Source: Rhodanobacter sp. C06 (GTDB taxonomy: Bacteria; Pseudomonadota; Gammaproteobacteria; Xanthomonadales; Rhodanobacteraceae). Taken from it: 39,483 bases of DNA. The position numbers and the translations under genes are program-made. This document shows positions 3,120 to 38,645 of the stretch, piece by piece. How positions within the stretch are numbered: the first letter of the stretch is position 1; the number at the start of each line of letters is the position of its first letter. The notes below the pieces were generated by a model. The model saw nothing but the letters and a program-made list of their open reading frames with translations. It had not been told where the DNA came from and ran no database searches. The stretch lies in assembly GCF_002001105.1 (NCBI RefSeq), contig NZ_MUNP01000075.1:1-39483 (forward strand), in the 5' to 3' direction.

Positions 3120-3142
3120 GACAACGCGCTTCTCGCGTTTGC

Positions 3143-3280
3143 CTCCTCTCCCCTCCGGGGAGAGGATTGAGGTGAGGGGACGGGGCTTGCGACAAGCCCA
3201 GGACAAAGCCCGCTCAATCAGACTCCATCGCCAGAACATCCCTCACCCCAACCCTCTCCCCGACGGGGAGAGGGAGTGGA
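3143..3280. repeat. Family 1 repeat pair, copies B and C in inverted orientation
   Basis: Copy B (stem 3145-3165, CCTCTCCCC/GGGGAGAGG) is followed by ATTGAGGTGAGGGG. Copy C is CCCCTCACCCCAACC-type sequence followed by a stem at 3252-3274 (CCCTCTCCCCG/CGGGGAGAGGG). B is the reverse complement of C, so the two form one composite element of about 135 bp. A small hairpin lies between them (GGGCTTG-CGA-CAAGCCC, about 3183-3200). The right end of C lies 10-15 nt before the prmA ATG. The element fills the accC-prmA gap and has no coding signature. Confidence 0.85.
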
Positions 3281-12509: not shown

Positions 12510-14804
12510 ATGGATGTCTCGCACCTGATCGACACGCTCAACGACGCGCAACGCGAAGCCGTCTGCGCCCCGCTTGGCCACTATCTCGTCCTCGCCGGCG
12601 CCGGCTCCGGCAAGACCAGCGTGCTCACGCGCCGCATCGGCTGGCTCACCCAGGTGGAGCGGGTGCCGCCATGGGCGATCCTCGCCGTCACCTTCACCAA
12701 CAAGGCCGCGGGCGAGATGCGCGCGCGGCTGGAGTCGCTGATTCCCGGCGGTACGCAAGGACTCACCGTGGGCACCTTCCACGGCATCGCCCACCGCCTG
12801 CTGCGCCGGCACTGGCGCGAGGCCGGACTGCCGGAAGGCTTCCAGATCCTCGACGCCGACGACCAGCAGCGACTGGTGAAGCGCGTGATAGCGGGACTGG
12901 GGCTGGACGAGGCGCGCTTTCCGCCGCGCCAGGCCACCTGGACGATCAACGGCTGGAAGGACGAGGGCAAGCGCCCCGACGCGATCGAGCACCGCGACCA
13001 TCCCGTCACGCACACCCTGGTGCGCATCTACCAGGCCTACGAGGACGCCTGCCACCGTGCCGGCCTGGTCGATTTCGCCGAGCTGCTGCTGCGTGCGCAC
13101 GAGCTGTGGCTGAAGAATCCGGCCGTACTGGAGCATTACCAGAGCCGCTGGCGGCACCTGCTGATCGACGAATTCCAGGACACCAACACGCTGCAGTACG
13201 CGTGGATCCGCGTGCTCGCCGGCCACAGCAGCAAGGTCTTCGCAGTGGGCGATGACGACCAGTCGATCTACGGCTGGCGTGGCGCGCGGGTGGAGAACAT
13301 GCAGCAGTTCCTCAAGGATTTCCCCGGCGCGCGCACGATCAAGCTGGAACAGAACTACCGCTCCACCGCCACCATCCTCAAGGCCGCGAACCACGTGATC
13401 GCGCGCAACGGCGGCCGCCTCGGCAAGGAACTGTGGACCGCCGGCGACGATGGCGAGCGCATCGCGCTGTACGCCGCCTACAACGAGCAGGACGAGGCGC
13501 GCTTCGTGGTCGAGCGCATCCGCGAATACATCGCCGAACACGGCAGCGCGAAGGACTGCGCCATCCTCTACCGCTCCAACGCGCAGTCGCGCAACTTCGA
13601 GGAACAGCTCACCCAGCGCAACATCCCCTACCGCGTCTACGGCGGCCAGCGCTTCTTCGAGCGCGCCGAGATCAAGGACGCGCTGGCCTACCTGCGGCTC
13701 ACCGCCAACCGCCACGACGACGCCTCGTTCGAGCGCGCGGTGAACACCCCGCCGCGCGGCATCGGCGACCGCACGCTCGACGTGTTGCGCCGCCGCGCCC
13801 GCAGCGAGCGCACGTCGATGTGGGAAGCCGCGCTGGCCGAACTCGCCGGCAGCGAACTGGCCGGGCGTGCGAAGAATGCGGTGAAGGCCTTCCTCGCCCT
13901 GATCGGCGAGATGAGCCGCACGTTTTCTCCCTCTCCCCTGCGGGGAGAGGGTCGGGGTGAAGGGTCGGGCTTGCCGGAAACTTCCGCTCCGCCCGAACCC
14001 TCTCCCCCAACCCCTCTCCCGGAGGGAGAGGGGAGTAATGCATTGCCCCTCGCCGAGCAGATCGACCACGTGCTCACCCACACCGGCCTGCGCGACCACT
14101 ACGAGAAGGACAGCCGCGGCAACGGCGAGGCGCGTATCGAGAACCTCGACGAACTGGTCAACGTGGCCAGCCGCTTCGAGCGCACCCAGGAGGACCTCGA
14201 TGCCGGCCTCGACGAGCTGTCCGCCTTCCTCTCGCATGCCGCGCTGGAAGCGGGCGAGGGCCAGGGCGAGGCCTGGGACGATTGCGTGCAGCTGATGACG
14301 CTGCACTCGGCCAAGGGCTTGGAGTTCCCGCTGGTGTTCCTGGTCGGGCTGGAGGAAGGCCTGTTCCCCAGCCAGCGCTCCACCGAGGACGAAGGCCGGT
14401 TGGAAGAGGAGCGCCGGCTCGCCTACGTGGGCATCACCCGCGCCCGCGATCGCCTGGTCATCAGCTACGCCGAATCGCGCCGCATGCACGGCACCGAGAT
14501 GCTGGCGCGCCCCTCGCGCTTCCTCGCCGAGATGCCCGCCGAACTGATCGACGAGGTGCGCCCGCGCGTGCAGGTGAGCCGCCCGCTCTACGCCGGCGCC
14601 GGCGCCGGCCGCTACACTGACACCAGTTCGCTGCAGGAAGACCTGCCGGTCAAGCTCGGCCAGCGCGTCAGCCACCCCAGCTTCGGCGAAGGCGTGGTGG
14701 TCAGCGCCGAAGGCAGCGGCGCGCACACGCGGCTGCAGGTGAATTTTGCCGGCGCCGGCAGCAAGTGGCTGGTGGCGGCGTACGCCAATCTCACGCCCTT
14801 GTAG
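12510..14804 (+). CDS. uvrD: DNA helicase II, with in-frame repeat insertion
   Basis: The 764-residue SF1 helicase acts in nucleotide excision and mismatch repair. Motif I is LAGAGSGKTSVL (Lys35), followed by TFTNKAAGEM, GTFHGIAHRLL, DEFQDTN, VGDDDQSIYGWRGA, QNYRST, YGGQRFFERAEIKDALAYLR, MTLHSAKGLEFP and YVGITRARDRL. The C-terminal Tudor-like tail (GQRVSHPSFGEGVVVSAEG, ending YANLTPL) identifies UvrD/PcrA. Residues about 473-513 (SPSPLRGEGRGEG to TPLPEGEGS) come from a family 1 repeat and fall in the 2B subdomain; the frame stays open. The ATG at 12510 is preferred over 12501 because of the -10 box spacing. A degraded copy of its 3' end lies at 19350-19508. Confidence 0.95.
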   Translation: MDVSHLIDTLNDAQREAVCAPLGHYLVLAGAGSGKTSVLTRRIGWLTQVERVPPWAILAVTFTNKAAGEMRARLESLIPGGTQGLTVGTFHGIAHRLLRRHWREAGLPEGFQILDADDQQRLVKRVIAGLGLDEARFPPRQATWTINGWKDEGKRPDAIEHRDHPVTHTLVRIYQAYEDACHRAGLVDFAELLLRAHELWLKNPAVLEHYQSRWRHLLIDEFQDTNTLQYAWIRVLAGHSSKVFAVGDDDQSIYGWRGARVENMQQFLKDFPGARTIKLEQNYRSTATILKAANHVIARNGGRLGKELWTAGDDGERIALYAAYNEQDEARFVVERIREYIAEHGSAKDCAILYRSNAQSRNFEEQLTQRNIPYRVYGGQRFFERAEIKDALAYLRLTANRHDDASFERAVNTPPRGIGDRTLDVLRRRARSERTSMWEAALAELAGSELAGRAKNAVKAFLALIGEMSRTFSPSPLRGEGRGEGSGLPETSAPPEPSPPTPLPEGEGSNALPLAEQIDHVLTHTGLRDHYEKDSRGNGEARIENLDELVNVASRFERTQEDLDAGLDELSAFLSHAALEAGEGQGEAWDDCVQLMTLHSAKGLEFPLVFLVGLEEGLFPSQRSTEDEGRLEEERRLAYVGITRARDRLVISYAESRRMHGTEMLARPSRFLAEMPAELIDEVRPRVQVSRPLYAGAGAGRYTDTSSLQEDLPVKLGQRVSHPSFGEGVVVSAEGSGAHTRLQVNFAGAGSKWLVAAYANLTPL
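13926..14036. repeat. Family 1 composite repeat, copy D, inside uvrD
   Basis: It holds two stems: 13929-13951 (CCCTCTCCCC, TGC, GGGGAGAGGG) and 14011-14033 (CCCCTCTCCC, GGA, GGGAGAGGGG). They are joined by a linker containing CTTCCGCTCCGCCCG. The layout, two inverted units around a spacer, matches the B/C pair. The linker CTCCGCTCCGCCCG recurs in copy E between thiG and trmB. Confidence 0.9.
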
Positions 14805-14986
14805 ATCATGTCGATTCCAGCCGACAGCGAGGCTGCCGATATCGGAAAGCAAACCCTGCTTCCGCTGTTTCCGACCGCGCTTGTTTGGGTGGCCAAACCC
14901 GCCGGCCGGCTCTTGCCAAGGCGCCGGATTGCGGGGAGGATGCCGACAATCGCGCCTTCCTGCGTTCTGGTTGAAAGGAGGATTGC

Positions 14987-16045
14987 ATGGATGTCGTGAT
15001 CGTCGACGACCAGGCTTCGGCCCGCACGATGTTGCGACACATCGTGCAGGACATCGGGCCACAGCTCGTCGTGCACGATTTCGGCGTGCCGCAAGCGGCG
15101 CTGGACTGGTGCGAGGACAACCGGCCCGACCTGCTGCTGCTGGACTACCGCATGCCGGGTATGGACGGGCTGGAACTGGCCAAGGCCTTCCGCAAGCCGC
15201 TGCGGAACCGGGATGTGCCCATCGTGCTGGTCACGGTGGTGGGCGACGAACCGGTGCGGCAGGCGGCGCTGGATGCCGGCGTGATCGATTTCCTGGTCAA
15301 GCCGATCCATCCGCGCGAGCTGCGCGCGCGTTGCCGCAACCTGCTGCAGTTGCGCCAGCAGTCGGAATCGATCAAGCAACGCTCGCTGTCGCTGGAGCAG
15401 CGGCTCCTCGCCAGCATGCACGAAGTCGAGGAACGCGAGCGCGAAACGCTGTCGCGGCTCGCGCGGGCCATCGAACTCCGCGACGCCGGCACCAGCGCCT
15501 TTCTCGAGCGCATGGCGCACATCGCCGGACTGATCGCGGAGGGGCTGGGGCTGCCGGAAGATCAGGTCCGCATGATCGAGTTGGCTGCGCCGCTGCACGA
15601 CATCGGCAAGATCGCCATCCCCGACGCGATCCTGCTGAAGCCGGGCCCGCTGGACGCGGAGGAACGTGCGCGCATGCAGCAGCACCCGCGCATCGGCTAC
15701 CAGCTGCTGCAGGACAGCCAGAGCCGCTTCATCCAGGCGGGCGCGCAGATCGCGCTGCGCCACCACGAACACTGGGACGGCAAAGGCTACCCGGACGGCT
15801 TGGCCGGCGAGGAAATCCCGATCGAGGCGCGGGTGACCACCGTGGCCGACGTGCTGGACGCCCTGCTGTCGCCGCGCCCGTACAAGGAGGCCTGGAGCAT
15901 CGAGCGCTCGCTCGAATACATCGGCACGCAAAGCGGCGTGCTGCTGGATCCGGACTGCGTGCGCGCCCTGATGGACAACCTGCCGCAGCTGCACGGCATC
16001 TGCGAACGCTACTCCCATGTTCCGCTCCATCGTGACTGGCGTTGA
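14987..16045 (+). CDS. rpfG: Response regulator with HD-GYP cyclic-di-GMP phosphodiesterase domain, RpfG
   Basis: The 352-residue protein has an N-terminal receiver domain with phospho-acceptor Asp53 ([13 protein letters not shown]) and Lys in FLVKPIHP, then a coiled linker (about 120-165). The C-terminal HD-GYP domain has His204-Asp205 in [25 protein letters not shown] (GYP at 267-269) and [13 protein letters not shown]. In Xanthomonas RpfG is phosphorylated by RpfC when DSF is sensed and degrades cyclic-di-GMP, switching on virulence and biofilm dispersal genes. A near-perfect ribosome binding site AAAGGAGG (14975-14982) precedes the ATG. The gene overlaps rpfC by 29 bp. The 182 bp upstream contain no gene. 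Confidence 0.93.
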
Positions 16046-18236
16046 CCGCGTGCGCCAGGCCTTGGCCTGGGTGCGCCTGCGGTTGCGCGGGCGCGCGGAC
16101 AGCGAGCATGCGCAGGTATTCGTGCGCATCGCGATCACCTTGCTGTTCTCCATCTATCTCGGCTGGAAGGTCGGCTGGGGCAACGACACCCCGGCGCTGT
16201 TCTCGACCTGGCTGATCCTGCTCGGCGAACTGGGCCTGTCGATCGGCCTGCTTGTCGCGATCCTCGCGGCGCCGCAGCCGTCGGAGCTGCGGCGCTGGCT
16301 GGGGATGCTGGCCGACTACGCGGCGATCGGCGGGGTCATGTACCTGCAGGGCGAATCGGCCTCCCCGCTGTACGCGGCGTACCTGTGGGTCACGATCGGC
16401 AACGGCATGCGCTACGGGCCGCGCTACCTGTACGCCTCCACCGCGCTGGCCACGCTGTCGTTCGGGGAGATGATGACGTTCACCCCCTACTGGCTGCAAA
16501 ACCGCTACCTGTCCTGGGGACTGCTGCTGGGCCTGGTCGCGGTGCCGCTGTACTTCGCCGCCCTGCTCAAGGCGCTGACCGCCGCGATCGAGGAAGCCCG
16601 GCGCGCCAACCTGGCCAAGAGCCGCTTCCTCGCCAACATGAGCCACGAGTTCCGCACGCCGCTGAACGGGCTGTCGGGCATGTCGGAGCTGCTGGCGAGC
16701 ACCCGGCTGGACGCGGAGCAGCGCGGCTACCTGGAAACCATCCAGGCCGCCAGCCGCTCGTTGCTGGCGCTGGTGGAGGACGTGCTGGACATCTCGGCGA
16801 TCGAGGCCGGCAAGCTGCGGCTGAAGCAGGAAAGCTTCAACCTGCATGCCTTGCTGGAGCAGATCAACCTGATGCTGCGCCCCGAGGCGCGCTCGAAGCG
16901 GCTGGACTACGCGGTGACGGTCATGCCGGAAGTGCCGGTGCAACTGCGCGGCGACGCCCGCCACCTGCAACAGGTGCTGGTGAACCTGCTCAGCAACGCG
17001 ATCAAGTTCACCGCGTCGGGCGAGGTCCACATGACGGTGGCGAAATCCGCCGTGGCCGGCGCGGGGCCGGTGCGCCTGCGCTTCACGGTGTCGGATACCG
17101 GCATAGGCATTCCCGTATCGGCGCGCGCGCGGCTGTTCGAGGCCTTCGAGCAGGTCGACAACAGCCTGGTTCGCAAGCACCAGGGCAGCGGGCTGGGTAC
17201 CACGATCGCCAAGGGCCTGACCGAGGCCATGGGCGGATCGATCGGGTTCGAAAGCCACGAGAACGTCGGCAGCAGCTTCTGGGTCGAGCTGCCGTTCGAT
17301 CTCGCCGCCGAGTCCGTACGCACAACCGACAGCGGCACAGCGCCGGCCGCGGACGCGCGCCTGTCGCCTGCGCCGTCGGCTGCGCACAACGTCATCGCGT
17401 TCGCCGATCCGTTCTCGCGCCATCGCGCGCGGATCAAGTCGGCCCGCGTGCTGGTCGCCGACGACCATGCCGCCAACCGCCTGCTCCTGCAGGGCGTGCT
17501 GCAGAAGGCCGGGCACCGGGTGATGACGGTGGAGGACGGCGAAGTCGCGCTCGATGCGCTGGTGGGCGGCGGCTTCGAGCTGGCGCTGCTGGACCTGCAC
17601 ATGCCGTCGCTGAGCGGGATCGACCTGCTGCGTCAGCTGCGCGTGATGGAAGCGGGCTCGCGCGCCCGTACCCCGGTGGTGATCATCAGCGCCGATGCCA
17701 CCCCCGAATCGGCCCAGGCCTGCCGCAACGCCGGGGCCCGCGCGTTCATCACCAAGCCCTTTGCCGCCGGCAGACTGCTCGACGCCATTGCGGCGATCCT
17801 GAGCGGCGGAGACGGCGAGGCAGCGGACAGCCCGCAACCGGTCGCGCACGCCTCCTCCGCGGAAGTGCTGGACCCGTCGGTGCTGGACGAACTCGCGTCG
17901 CTCGGGATGGGCAAGGTCTTCGAAGCCGATTTCATCGGCCAGTGCATTACCGACGCGCGGGTGGCGCTGGCCAAGATGCGCCAGACCGGGGCGGAGGCCG
18001 ACTGGGAACAGTTCCGCGAGCATGCCCACGCCATGAAGGGGATTGCCGGCAATCTCGGCCTGGTGCAGTGCGCCGGCTTGAGCGGCGCCCTGATGCGGAT
18101 GACCGCCTTCGAGCTGGACCGCGACTGGCGGCGCCACTGCGAAAGCCTGACCCAGCGCCTGCACGAGGGCGAACAGGCGCTGCAAGCGCGCGGGAGCTGG
18201 CTACCCGCGCGCGAGGACAATCCGCAGCCGTCATGA
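16017..18236 (+). CDS. rpfC: Hybrid sensor histidine kinase RpfC (DSF receptor)
   Basis: The 739-residue protein has a membrane input domain with about five helices between residues 40 and 195, a HisKA domain (His210 in [12 protein letters not shown]), and a HATPase domain ([29 protein letters not shown]). A receiver domain (Asp526 in [11 protein letters not shown]) and a C-terminal Hpt domain (His671 in [11 protein letters not shown]) follow. Order and size match Xanthomonas RpfC, which senses DSF and phosphorylates RpfG, and whose receiver domain binds and restrains RpfF. The start lies inside rpfG, suggesting coupled translation. Its TGA (18234-18236) directly abuts the opposing stop of rpfF. 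rpfH, present between rpfG and rpfC in some xanthomonads, is absent. Confidence 0.93.
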
Positions 18237-19133
18237 TCAGGCCTGCGCGGCGGTCGGTTCGCCATGCCGGCGGTACTGCGCGCGCACCAGCCGCTCCATG
18301 GTCCGCAGCGACTTCTCGCCGAGCTGCAGCGCGGTATCCACCCAGACCTCGGTGATCGCCATCATTTCTTCCAGGGTCACCGGTTGCGCCAGCGTCCGGA
18401 CCCGATGCATGGCCATGCGCGCGTGCGGGATGCGGCGGTTGCCGCGGATGACTTCCTCGACCGCCTGCACGCCCTGCCCGCGCGGGGCCAGGACATCCAC
18501 CAGACCCATCTTGTAGAGCTCTTCGCTGGACAGGATGTCGCCGCTCAGCATCAGCTGTTCGGCCCGATGCGGCGGGATGCGCTTGCACAGGAAGGAGTAG
18601 GCCCCCATCCCCGGGAACAGGTCGAACAGCACCTCCGGCAGCCCCATGCCGACGCCTTCCTCCGCCACGATGGTATGGCAGCTCAGCGCGACCTCGAAGC
18701 CGCCGCCCAGCGCATCGCCCTGCACCAGCGCGATGCTGTGCGCATCGGCATCGAGCCCGGCATGGAACGCATGCACGCCACGCACGCATTGCCGGGCGTA
18801 GGTCAGCAGGGCAGGACGGTTCTGGTGGCGGATCGCGTTGCAGAAGTATTCCAGGTCGCCACCGAGGTTGAACGCATCGCAGTCGGAAGCGAGCACCACG
18901 TGCCGCAGGCCGGCTTCGCCGAACATGCGCTCCCGGCGCAGGCGGTCGCCCAGGACGTTCTGGTACTGCAGGATGTCGGCAACCAGTGCCGGCTTGAAGC
19001 AGGCGCGGCCGGGCGAACTGGCCAGATCGGCGTGCATGTGGCACCAGTGCACGGCGGCATCGGCGCTCTCGGTGACGCGCAGGGTGGGGTAACGGGGGGC
19101 AGCAGCAAGCTTCTCGAGGATCGCGGTAGCCAT
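18237..19133 (-). CDS. rpfF: DSF synthase RpfF (crotonase family)
   Basis: The 298-residue crotonase-fold enzyme makes the cis-2-unsaturated fatty acid signal DSF by acting as dehydratase and thioesterase on 3-hydroxyacyl-ACP. FNLGGDLEYF, GDALGGGFEVALS and GLPEVLFDLFPGMGAY are hallmarks of RpfF. The two catalytic glutamates (Glu141 and Glu161 of the Xanthomonas enzyme) correspond to Glu147 and Glu167 here, and both are present, which separates it from plain enoyl-CoA hydratases. The ATG at 19133 has GGAG 9 nt upstream. It converges on rpfC with no base between the stops. rpfB, its usual operon partner, is not next to it. Confidence 0.94.
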   Translation of the reverse strand: MATAILEKLAAAPRYPTLRVTESADAAVHWCHMHADLASSPGRACFKPALVADILQYQNVLGDRLRRERMFGEAGLRHVVLASDCDAFNLGGDLEYFCNAIRHQNRPALLTYARQCVRGVHAFHAGLDADAHSIALVQGDALGGGFEVALSCHTIVAEEGVGMGLPEVLFDLFPGMGAYSFLCKRIPPHRAEQLMLSGDILSSEELYKMGLVDVLAPRGQGVQAVEEVIRGNRRIPHARMAMHRVRTLAQPVTLEEMMAITEVWVDTALQLGEKSLRTMERLVRAQYRRHGEPTAAQA

Positions 19134-19214
19134 GGTCGCTCCAGACGGGTGATGCCAGCCCGGGCCCCGTGGCCGGCGGGACACGGAAGGTACGTCAAGG
19201 GGGGCCCGGAGGCC

Positions 19215-19243
19215 TCTATGCACCCAAACGCCCGTGAGTGCAA
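19215..19243 (-). promoter_or_regulatory. Candidate rpfF promoter
   Basis: On the minus strand, TTGCAC (19238-19243) and CATAGA (19215-19220) are separated by exactly 17 nt. The predicted start near 19208 gives a leader of about 75 nt to the rpfF ATG. The -10 match is modest. Nothing else is recognisable in 19134-19349. Confidence 0.4.
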
Positions 19244-19349
19244 GGAAACGCCCGGTACAGGGAGTTGCATGCACCGGATCGATGGCACGCTGCGTATCCA
19301 GCCGCGCCACGGCCGTCACGATCAGCCACTGGCCAGCATGTGATGCTTT

Positions 19350-19508
19350 GGTGAAGCCTGGCCCGCGCGTCAGCCACCCCGGCTTCGCCGAAGGCGTGGT
19401 GGTCAGCGCCGTAGGCAGCGGCGCGCACACACGCGGTTGCCGGTGAACTCGCGGTCGTGGGCAGCGTGGCTGGTGGTGAGCTACGCCAGCGTTGCGCCGC
19501 CGCGCTGA
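19350..19508 (+). pseudogene. Degraded second copy of the uvrD 3' end
   Basis: Bases 19365-19430 match uvrD 14663-14728 at 63 of 66 positions in the same orientation. They encode RVSHPGFAEGVVVSAVGSG against RVSHPSFGEGVVVSAEGSG in UvrD. A 2-bp AC insertion then shifts the frame. The shifted frame continues as VNSRSWAAWLVVSYASVAPP and stops at 19506-19508, parallel to VNFAGAGSKWLVAAYANLTPL of UvrD. The fragment therefore covers the whole C-terminal Tudor-like tail, well conserved in its first half and diverged in its second. It has no start and cannot make a helicase. It abuts the stop codon of the opposing hydrolase gene. Confidence 0.85.
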
Positions 19509-20528
19509 TCAACCGTGCGCTGGTGCGAGCTCCTTCAGCGCCTGCTTCACCGCATCCGCCACGGCTTGCGGCTGATCCAGCTCGACGTCGTGCGAGCTGT
19601 CGGCCACCTTGCGCAGCACGCCACGGGCCGAGCTCGCCACGATGCGTCGCTGGGTCGCGTCGCGCGCCGCCTCCAGCCGCTTGCGCATGTCGGCGGGCGC
19701 GTCGGCATAGGTGCCCGCGGCCTGCAGCACCACCAGCGGCATGGTGCCGTGCGATTCGTTTGCAGGCACCGGCTGCGCGAACACCGACACGTTCTGCGCC
19801 AGTTCCGAGCGCAGCGTGTGCCAGAACGCCGGACGCAGCGTGCGCGCATGATTGGCCGCGGCGACCGCCTTGCTCTCCCATGGCGCCGGTTTGTCGATGC
19901 ACTGCGCCAGCGCGGGCGACGGCCTGGCCAACTCGCCACGCTCGGCGGCAGCCTCGCAACCCGCGATGAACGCATCGCGCTGCTGGTCCAGCATCGCATC
20001 GTCCTTCATCCACTGCGCCGACATGAAACGAGCCAGGTCCTGAGCGGGCGGATCGACCAACACCAGCGCGGCGACCTCGCCGGGATACCCGCTGGCGTAG
20101 CGACGCACGATGTTGCTGCCCAGCGAATGGCCCACCAGCACCAGGGGCGTATGCAGATGGGCGGCTTCGACCAGCGCATGCAGGTCGGCCACGTCGGCGT
20201 CGAGCCCGCGCGGCAACGGCCCAGCATCGCTGAAACCATAGCCCGCACGGTCGTAGGAGCAGACGCGCGTCCGCGCTGCCAGCAGCGGCCGCACGCGGAA
20301 CCAGCTCTCCGAATCAGCATGCGAGCCGGACTCCAGCAGCACGGTCATCGGCCCGCTGCCGCTGCAGCGCACGTTGAGGTAGCGGCCCTGGCCAATGGCG
20401 ATACGCTGGCCCGGTTTGGCGTAGCTTTCCGGTGTCTTTGCGAGGGTCGCCGGCGCGGCCATCGCTGCGGTGGCCAACGGCAGCACCGTGCAGGTCGCGA
20501 CCAGAGGTCCGAGGTGCCGGAGTTTCAT
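19509..20528 (-). CDS. Exported alpha/beta hydrolase
   Basis: The 339-residue protein has a signal peptide (MKLRHLGPLVATCTVLPLATAAMA, cleavage about residue 24-25), so it acts outside the cytoplasm. The hydrolase fold shows YLNVRCSGSGPMTVLLESG (oxyanion strand), YDRAGYGFSD, the nucleophile elbow LVGHSLGSNIV, LVLVDPP and a late histidine in DSSHDVELDQP. The likely triad is Ser-Asp-His. The substrate is unknown. It sits upstream of the rpf cluster, but I see no evidence that it processes DSF. The ATG at 20528 starts the signal peptide. 128 bp separate it from hemY on the same strand. Confidence 0.85.
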   Translation of the reverse strand: MKLRHLGPLVATCTVLPLATAAMAAPATLAKTPESYAKPGQRIAIGQGRYLNVRCSGSGPMTVLLESGSHADSESWFRVRPLLAARTRVCSYDRAGYGFSDAGPLPRGLDADVADLHALVEAAHLHTPLVLVGHSLGSNIVRRYASGYPGEVAALVLVDPPAQDLARFMSAQWMKDDAMLDQQRDAFIAGCEAAAERGELARPSPALAQCIDKPAPWESKAVAAANHARTLRPAFWHTLRSELAQNVSVFAQPVPANESHGTMPLVVLQAAGTYADAPADMRKRLEAARDATQRRIVASSARGVLRKVADSSHDVELDQPQAVADAVKQALKELAPAHG

Positions 20529-20656: not shown

Positions 20657-21910
20657 CTATCCGCGCAACCGCGGCACCCCGTGCTCGTCGCGCTCCTCGA
20701 CCGCGATGGCGCTGGTGTCGATCACGCCAGCGGTCTGGCTGGCGGACTGGCGCACGGTTTCGCCGCGGGTCATGGCGAGCGCGTTGCGGTAGCAGCGTTG
20801 CGCTTGGGTAGCGTCGCCCTGGCCTTGCCAGGCATCGCCCAGCGCTTCCCACGCGCTCGCGCTTGGTGCCAGCGCCAGCGCGCGTTCGAGGTACTGGCGG
20901 GCCTTGCCCCACAGCTTGGCGCGCACGCAGATGCGGCCGGTGGCGAGCAGCAGGGCGGCGTCGTTGGGATGGGCATCGAGCCAGCCCTCGGCACGGCGCA
21001 GGCGGGCGTCGAGGTCGCCGCCGGCGAGCACGCCGTAGGCTTCCACCAGTTCCGGCGACCATTCGCGGCGCAGCGCGGATTCGAGTTCGTCCATCGCCGG
21101 CAGCACCAGGCCGAAGCCGGCGGCACGGCGGGCGTAGGCGTCGATCGCGGCGGGGGCGCGGCGCTGGGTCTTGGGCAGTTGCGACCACAGCGTGTTGAGC
21201 GCGGCCCCGTCGGGCGCCGTGTCGATGGCGGCGACCAGCACCCTCGCTTCCAGCGCGGTGTAGCCGCGCGTGCCCAGCGCGCCGCTTTTCTGCAGCGGTT
21301 CCAGCGCGGCGAGCGCGCGGCGGGTGTCGCCCGCAACCAGCGCGGAGAGCGCGAGTTCGCGCCAGCCGCCGGGCGGCAGCGCGCCCTTGTCGGCATCGGG
21401 CACCAGCAGGGCCAGCGCTTCGGCGGCCTTGCCGTCGCGGCGCAACACGCGGGCGCGCAGCACGCGCGCCGCCTGCGGTGCGGCCTGCGAAGCTTCGGCG
21501 AGGATTTCCAGCGCGCGGCCATGCTCGCCGCGGCGCGAGGCGGCTTCGGCGGAAGCCAGCAGAGCGACACCACGCAACGCATCCAGCCGCGAGGCGCGGT
21601 TGAGGTCGCGCTCGGCGTCGCCGTGGCGGCCCTCCATCAGCGCGATCAGGCCCTCGGCCAGCCGCTTGCGGCTGAGCCGGCGATGCCGCCGCGACAGCGC
21701 GCCGAATGGCCAGCGCAGCAGCCGCCACACCACGACGAGGACGGCCCAGGCCACCAGCAGGATGAGCAGGGCGGCGACCACCGTGGTCTCCACGCGCCAA
21801 CCGCGCAGGCGCACCAGCACGTAGCCGGGATCGACCGCCACCCAGTGCCAGCCGAACGCCGCCAGCGCGGCGACGATCGCCAGCAGCAGGATCCAGCGCC
21901 ACAGGCTCAT
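20657..21910 (-). CDS. hemY: HemY-type TPR membrane protein
   Basis: The 417-residue protein opens with two membrane helices (about residues 5-24 and 42-63) around a short loop (VDPGYVLVRLRGWRVETT) that is the HemY N-terminal signature. A long helical tetratricopeptide-repeat region follows (AEGLIALMEGRHGDAERDL, LLASAEAASRRGEHGRALEIL and similar units). Proteobacterial HemY of this kind is encoded behind hemX in the hemD operon. Its role in tetrapyrrole synthesis is unproven, and it is not the protoporphyrinogen oxidase of the same name. Its ATG overlaps the hemX stop (ATGA, 21907-21910). Confidence 0.9.
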   Translation of the reverse strand: MSLWRWILLLAIVAALAAFGWHWVAVDPGYVLVRLRGWRVETTVVAALLILLVAWAVLVVVWRLLRWPFGALSRRHRRLSRKRLAEGLIALMEGRHGDAERDLNRASRLDALRGVALLASAEAASRRGEHGRALEILAEASQAAPQAARVLRARVLRRDGKAAEALALLVPDADKGALPPGGWRELALSALVAGDTRRALAALEPLQKSGALGTRGYTALEARVLVAAIDTAPDGAALNTLWSQLPKTQRRAPAAIDAYARRAAGFGLVLPAMDELESALRREWSPELVEAYGVLAGGDLDARLRRAEGWLDAHPNDAALLLATGRICVRAKLWGKARQYLERALALAPSASAWEALGDAWQGQGDATQAQRCYRNALAMTRGETVRQSASQTAGVIDTSAIAVEERDEHGVPRLRG

Positions 21911-38449: not shown

Positions 38450-38645
38450 TGCTCCCCTCTCCCTTCGGACGCGGGGAAGGGCCATGGATGGCCCTGCCTT
38501 GAGGAGCGAGGAAGAGGGGTTGGGGGAGAGGGTTCGGCCGAAGCGCGCCACAGCCGTTTCGCGCAGATCTGGTCCACGGCTCTCCGCTCCGCCCGCACCC
38601 TCACCCGCCTGCCGGCACCCTCCCCCGGAGGGAGAGGGATTCACT
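38450..38645. repeat. Family 1 composite repeat, copy E
   Basis: The gap between thiG and trmB is filled by CCCCTCTCCCTTCGG-type sequence, a hairpin GGGCCAT/ATGGCCC (38479-38494), GGTTGGGGGAGAGGG, then CTCCGCTCCGCCCG and a final arm ending GGAGGGAGAGGG (38627-38638). It is a degenerate two-ended element like copy D, with which it shares the internal linker. Its right arm lies 25 nt before the trmB ATG. Confidence 0.8.

What the first reader, a model, noticed from the sequence alone, without database searches (positions are those of the whole stretch)
14663..19508. DSF quorum-sensing module flanked by direct copies of the uvrD 3' end
The end of uvrD (14663-14804) recurs in the same orientation at 19365-19508 (63 of 66 identical in the core, then a 2-bp frameshift and divergence). 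Between the copies lie exactly rpfG, rpfC and rpfF. Elements that integrate into the 3' end of a gene often restore that end and leave the displaced copy at the far side. An old tandem duplication or homologous recombination with foreign DNA that carried uvrD-rpf would look the same. Either way it suggests the rpf module moved in as one block, and the direct repeats could still permit its excision by recombination.
Basis: partly seen in the sequence, partly recalled or inferred. Interest (0 to 1): 0.8.

Follow-up and report, generated by a model that had tools for sequence, protein, structure and literature searches.

The report
Old uvrD end between stacked cargos
A leftover end of the DNA-repair gene uvrD lies between two alternative sets of passenger genes (a chemical-signalling set and a hydrolase) that have been stacked at one busy chromosomal landing spot, a trace of how ordinary recombination can pile up foreign genes without a mobile element.

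Summary
The repeat is real: the last ~150 bp of uvrD (14648-14804) recur, decayed, at ~19345-19508, with rpfG, rpfC and rpfF between. It is not the general footprint of the rpf module. Of 15 genus genomes (own included) 8 carry rpfGCF between uvrD and hemY, and only this one has the fragment. The fragment belongs with its right-hand neighbour, an alpha/beta hydrolase: 8 relatives have that hydrolase 10-32 bp after uvrD, and the junction aligns. So the locus is a stack of two alternative cargos of a uvrD-hemY hotspot (interval 12 bp to 9.4 kb in 64 genomes). Similar scars recur: uvrD 3' relics in 4 of 133 genomes (one or two of them possibly plain duplications) and a hemY 3' relic in G004. Best mechanism: recombination anchored in a flanking core gene with an illegitimate far end, as proposed for Vibrio type VI effector arrays. 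rpfGCF did enter as a block, apparently once, from a Thermomonas-like source; two rpf-negative genomes inside the clade point to loss or replacement. Unresolved: whether rpf displaced the hydrolase allele, or the hydrolase block came later. No integrase among the four genes; easy excision is unlikely (longest identical run 23 bp).

The parts
12510..14804 (+). uvrD (DNA helicase II), intact; left anchor of the hotspot
   Evidence: NCBIfam NF008743 1141 bits, over its cut-off; present in 15 of 15 genus genomes
14648..14804 (+). 3' end of uvrD, first copy
14987..16045 (+). rpfG, response regulator with HD-GYP-type (HD_5) domain
   Evidence: Pfam Response_reg + HD_5
16017..18236 (+). rpfC, hybrid sensor kinase (HisKA, HATPase_c, Response_reg, Hpt)
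18237..19133 (-). rpfF, DSF synthase of the crotonase fold
   Evidence: solved RpfF 3m6m E 3.6e-114; best NCBIfam model is RpfF, 442.6 bits, below its cut-off of 550
19134..19344 (.). rpfF-side spacer; in 6 other rpf+ genomes it runs straight to hemY (231-244 bp); the half near the fragment is diverged from the sister genome (71%) while the rpfF half is 97%
19345..19508 (+). decayed uvrD 3' end, second copy (approximate left edge)
19509..20528 (-). alpha/beta hydrolase; alternative cargo of the hotspot
   Evidence: Pfam Abhydrolase_1 / _6; next to uvrD in other genomes
20657..21910 (-). hemY-like TPR protein gene; right anchor of the hotspot
   Evidence: TIGR00540 221.9 bits, over its cut-off

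Best explanation
The convergent gap between the core genes uvrD and hemY is a hotspot that takes different cargos in different Rhodanobacteraceae. In this genome two of these cargos are stacked: uvrD | rpfGCF | relic of a uvrD 3' end | hydrolase | hemY. The relic is the old uvrD end that belonged to the uvrD-hydrolase allele. The likely step is recombination between the two alleles with one end anchored by homology in a flanking core gene and the other end joined illegitimately, so that the new cargo was added instead of exchanged and a piece of the core gene was left at the seam. Shown: the relic, its link to the hydrolase, the alternative alleles, repeated scars. Inferred: the recombination mechanism. 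Unresolved: which cargo came second.
For: (1) Hydrolase lies 10-32 bp after uvrD in 8 genomes (G191, G195, G198, G203, G211, G222, G233, G023) and the relic-hydrolase junction aligns with theirs. (2) Six of the 7 other rpf+ genomes have rpfF 231-244 bp from hemY with neither relic nor hydrolase; the seventh, G014, has 5 kb of other DNA there. (3) The interval is variable: 12 to 9392 bp, median 1778, in 64 genomes with both ends, with unrelated cargos. (4) The same scar elsewhere: G203 = uvrD | hydrolase | uvrD relic | trypsin-like protease | hemY, while G201 has protease and hydrolase in the other order without a relic; G231 = uvrD | DNA | uvrD relic | DNA | hemY; mirror image in G004 = uvrD | acetyltransferase | hemY relic | rpfGCF | hemY. 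(5) Profile scan: uvrD relics in 4 of 133 genomes, none in shuffled intervals.
Against: The relic cannot be placed in a tree (AU p 0.2-0.37) and no donor is known: the hydrolase is at most 78% identical to any other found. In G231 the relic is closest to the resident uvrD (rank 1 of 69) and in G179 it lies about 21 bp after uvrD with no cargo between, so one or both may be plain duplications. The hemY relic in G004 is weak by profile (E 0.0033), though strong against its own hemY (E 2e-10, z 11.9). No imported tract is seen in uvrD or hemY when compared with sister G010.
Confidence: 0.8

Rival explanations
1. Order 1: rpf DNA joined a chromosome that had uvrD-hydrolase-hemY; the recipient's uvrD end was displaced with its hydrolase, and other rpf+ lineages later lost that block (or G000 regained it from a lineage that kept it).
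For: The relic looks old: differences from resident uvrD are even over codon positions (7/50, 12/51, 11/53) against 1, 0, 6 between the G000 and G010 genes; novel states at codon positions 1+2 are 17 of 101 (8 of 76 without the ends), against 0.025-0.034 per lineage since the G000/G010 split and 0.06-0.17 for the other six rpf+ genomes.
Against: Needs loss of the block in G010 and in the other rpf+ lineages with the same 231-244-bp spacer left each time; the trimmed count is small and its error wide; the relic could have decayed in a donor.
Confidence: 0.45
2. Order 2: the chromosome had uvrD-rpfGCF-hemY, and a block (uvrD end + hydrolase) was added beside hemY in the G000 lineage only.
For: Sister G010 (95% DNA identity over 5.4 kb) and 5 other rpf+ genomes lack the block and keep the plain spacer, so one gain is the most economical history.
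Against: The age signal above; the distal spacer differs from G010 by 29% while nearby noncoding DNA differs by 3-5%, so the odd haplotype reaches into the rpf side (but this spacer half is diverged in nearly all pairs of rpf+ genomes, 58-77%); no donor tract in hemY.
Confidence: 0.4
3. A site-specific integrative element inserted at the 3' end of uvrD and restored it, leaving the displaced copy at the far side.
For: Geometry alone.
Against: The genes in the interval are RpfG, RpfC, RpfF and a hydrolase; no tRNA nearby; no phage or plasmid record covers as much as 80% of the block, best about 11% and 5%; the other 7 rpf+ genomes lack the repeat; the copy is joined to the native uvrD-hydrolase junction.
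Confidence: 0.03
4. A tandem duplication of the resident uvrD end, with rpf inserted between or carried along.
For: Same orientation, same genome.
Against: Resident uvrD is 17th of 69 in identity to the fragment (0.790; best 0.809); the downstream hydrolase junction matches other genera. A grouping with the resident gene is not rejected by the AU test (p 0.205 and 0.371).
Confidence: 0.07

Closest known systems
[quoted passage not shown] 2017, PMC5635113; passages seen)
   Same: Accessory genes turn over between two conserved core genes without a recognised mobile element; [quoted passage not shown]
   Different: Here single cases show the seams: truncated ends of the anchor genes left between stacked cargos. 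Recombination rates were not measured here.
Stepwise displacement of type VI effector-immunity modules in Vibrio cholerae, proposed to use homology-facilitated illegitimate recombination (Kirchberger et al. 2017, PMC5361080; passages seen)
   Same: A new module is added at a constant 5' part, and the old 3' end is shifted back behind it.
   Different: The anchor is a housekeeping repair gene and the cargos are unrelated functions, not toxin-immunity pairs; a scar from the other anchor (hemY) is also seen.
rpf clusters for DSF signalling in Xanthomonadaceae
   Same: rpfG, rpfC, rpfF present together; RpfF matches solved RpfF.
   Different: The trio sits between uvrD and hemY only in this genus among the loci compared; closest kin are in Thermomonas.

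Membership tests
Core-gene-flanked recombination hotspot | Two conserved neighbours with a highly variable content between | tested here: met
   64 intervals, 12-9392 bp, unrelated cargos; hemY was found downstream of uvrD in 96 of 133 genomes, so the neighbourhood is not universal
Core-gene-flanked recombination hotspot | No integrase or other mobile-element gene needed | tested here: inconclusive
   None among the four genes here; other intervals were not all scanned, and G012 holds an integrase-core-like (transposase-type) reading frame by eye
Core-gene-flanked recombination hotspot | Raised recombination in the flanking core genes | tested here: inconclusive
   No foreign tract between G000 and G010; no population-scale test possible
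Additive (homology-facilitated illegitimate) displacement | Displaced 3' end of the anchor gene behind the new cargo, joined to the old cargo | tested here: met
   Relic joined to the hydrolase as in 8 relatives
Additive (homology-facilitated illegitimate) displacement | One homologous and one illegitimate junction | not testable with these tools
   Junctions are old and decayed; no donor known
Site-specific integrative element | Integrase gene and att-type repeats shared by carriers | tested here: not met
   no integrase among the genes scanned; repeat in 1 of 8 rpf+ genomes
DSF (rpf) signalling cluster | RpfF synthase, RpfC sensor, RpfG regulator with expected domains | tested here: met
   caveat: RpfF scores 442.6 bits against a curated cut-off of 550
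DSF (rpf) signalling cluster | Makes and senses DSF | not testable with these tools
   needs a bioassay

The most novel reading that the evidence does not exclude
uvrD-hemY acts as an integrase-free cassette site: cargos circulate between species attached to pieces of uvrD or hemY, are swapped by homologous recombination, and now and then stack into arrays whose seams are marked by relics of either anchor gene. The DSF module is one such cargo.
Probability: 0.4. Interest if true: 0.7.

Novelty: new variant of a known kind. Interest (0 to 1): 0.5.

Why it matters
Hotspots without mobile elements are usually explained statistically. Anchor-gene relics at the seams give physical traces of single addition events, at a housekeeping locus and with unrelated cargos, and make the additive route countable across genomes. 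It also shows a quorum-sensing module crossing from a Xanthomonadaceae-like source into Rhodanobacter and later missing in two members of the clade.

Tried and rejected
Placing the relic by phylogeny: too short and too decayed. Finding a donor tract in uvrD or hemY: none. Hydrolase tree: G000 groups weakly with G203, not resolved. First rpoB tree was wrong because some loci were on the other strand; redone. Relic candidates dropped: hits to an inner uvrD stretch in G132 and G124 (E 8e-8 and 9e-13, probably another helicase gene, not checked further); hemY hits in G006 (z 2.2), G002, G023, G148, G183 (short or on the other strand); G193 (z 5.3, not seen by the profile) kept only as a hint; G160 profile hit (E 1.7e-34) taken as that contig's own hemY, which the protein search had missed. 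Plasmid and phage collections: only partial matches.
Full report
WHAT IS THERE. The last ~150 bp of uvrD recur in the same orientation at ~19345-19508. rpfG, rpfC and rpfF lie between. The second copy is no longer coding: it has a 2-bp insertion and other indels, and its differences from resident uvrD are spread evenly over codon positions, 7/50, 12/51 and 11/53. In the same stretch sister genome G010 differs from G000 at 1, 0 and 6 sites. The own genome has no other strong match. A uvrD 3' profile finds the copy at E 1.4e-26 and nothing below E 0.1 in shuffled intervals.

WHOSE GENOME. The closest named loci for RpfF are Rhodanobacter. The family search calls the genus g1; 15 genomes of it are held, own included.

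THE NEIGHBOURHOOD IN RELATIVES. RpfF is present in 8 of 15 genus genomes, always between uvrD and hemY. In six of the other seven, rpfF is followed directly by hemY, 231-244 bp away (G010, G004, G013, G002, G007, G008). G014 has 5 kb of other DNA in that place. None of these seven has a uvrD relic. So the fragment is not a shared footprint of rpf. The hydrolase, by contrast, sits 10-32 bp after uvrD in eight genomes (G191, G195, G198, G203, G211, G222, G233, G023), and further away in G006 and G201 where another gene lies between. The joint between relic and hydrolase in G000 aligns with those joints. Distances are measured to the ends of the protein alignments.

A HOTSPOT. In 64 genomes with both ends found the uvrD-hemY interval ranges from 12 to 9392 bp, median 1778; 7 are under 100 bp and 21 over 3 kb. 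Cargos include rpfGCF (8), the hydrolase (10), a Transgly_assoc protein (3), a trypsin-like protease (3), a multicopper-oxidase/cytochrome protein (3), an acetyltransferase (2) and others. 27 intervals over 300 bp hold none of the 15 query proteins that I tried, so the cargo list is incomplete.

OTHER SCARS. I fetched the stretch after uvrD for 134 of the 233 family genomes searched (window included), chosen from those with a listed uvrD-end match plus the whole genus; G077 was too short, leaving 133. A uvrD 3' profile hits four: G231, G203, G000, G179. G203 reads uvrD, hydrolase, relic, protease, hemY; G201 carries the same two cargos in the other order without a relic. G231's relic is closest to its own uvrD, and G179's lies directly after uvrD, so these may be duplications. 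G004 holds a relic of the hemY 3' end between an acetyltransferase gene and rpfG (E 2.3e-10 against its own hemY; z 11.9; only E 0.0033 by profile). Shuffled intervals gave no hit for either profile.

WHERE rpf CAME FROM. Outside the genus the closest RpfF are in Thermomonas (80-86%), with RpfG 79-83% and RpfC 59-73% (the related thermophile MAG L036 is 83, 85 and 70%). Within the family but outside the genus, the best listed is 66% (RpfF-like matches at E 1e-40 in 37 of 233 genomes). None of the 75 non-Rhodanobacter loci L036-L112, with up to 7 kb of flank, shows uvrD or hemY. The five Rhodanobacter loci are probably the same records as five of the G genomes (equal contig lengths), so they are not independent.

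TREES. The unrooted topology of the 8 rpf+ genomes is the same for rpfGCF and for hemY-hemX; the roots differ with weak support. In the rpoB tree of 11 genomes (G005, G007 and G014 had no rpoB hit and the partial G011 was left out) G001 and G003, which lack rpf, fall inside the rpf+ clade (99 for the clade); the flank tree agrees. Both have a Transgly_assoc gene instead. One entry followed by two losses or replacements is the simplest history. rpfGCF thus looks inherited since an early entry, not newly arrived in G000.

WHICH CARGO CAME SECOND. Economy favours a late addition of relic + hydrolase in G000, since G010 and the rest lack it. The decay favours an old seam: 17 of 101 novel states at codon positions 1 and 2 (8 of 76 with the ends cut off), against 0.025-0.034 substitutions per lineage since the G000/G010 split. 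The error on the trimmed figure is wide, and the relic may have decayed in a donor. The rpfF-distal half of the spacer is only 71% identical between G000 and G010, while the proximal half is 97% and the uvrD-rpfG spacer 95.6%; but that half is diverged in nearly all pairs. No foreign tract shows in uvrD or hemY. I leave the order open.

MECHANISM. Inferred: recombination anchored in uvrD (or hemY, G004) at one end and illegitimate at the other adds a cargo and strands an anchor end. The idea is in print for Vibrio type VI arrays (PMC5361080, passages) and homology-facilitated illegitimate recombination is known from transformation and conjugation (PMC3240628, search listing only). Core-gene-flanked hotspots without mobile elements, often beside repair genes, are described in PMC5635113 (passages).

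IN PRINT? Searches for Rhodanobacter with rpfF (4 papers) and with diffusible signal factor (5 papers) list papers on other subjects, each with one or two mentions of the genus; I did not read them. Rhodanobacter with natural competence: none.

EXCISION. The longest identical run between the copies is 23 bp, short for RecA (general knowledge), so loss of rpfGCF by recombination of the repeats should be rare.

Noticed in passing
window 13925-14043: A palindromic repeat of the REP kind (name from general knowledge) is inserted in frame inside the uvrD coding region; 48 partial matches in the own genome, also near 3136-3276 and 38510-38638 of the window. Alignments with several relatives break there.
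   Followed up: partly
G004 (L159), about 603-720 bp after uvrD: Decayed 3' end of hemY between an acetyltransferase gene and rpfG, the mirror image of the uvrD relic.
   Followed up: partly
G203 (L233) and G231 (L256), interval after uvrD: Further uvrD 3' relics between cargos. The DNA on either side in G231 is unassigned: one reading frame scanned, no Pfam match.
   Followed up: partly
L168 6448-10392 (G014): Between rpfF and hemY a 1314-aa protein with a weak, sub-cut-off NACHT match, possibly a defence-type protein.
   Followed up: no
window 19134-19345: The half of the rpfF-hemY spacer away from rpfF is far more diverged than the half next to rpfF in nearly all pairs of rpf+ genomes; unexplained.
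   Followed up: partly
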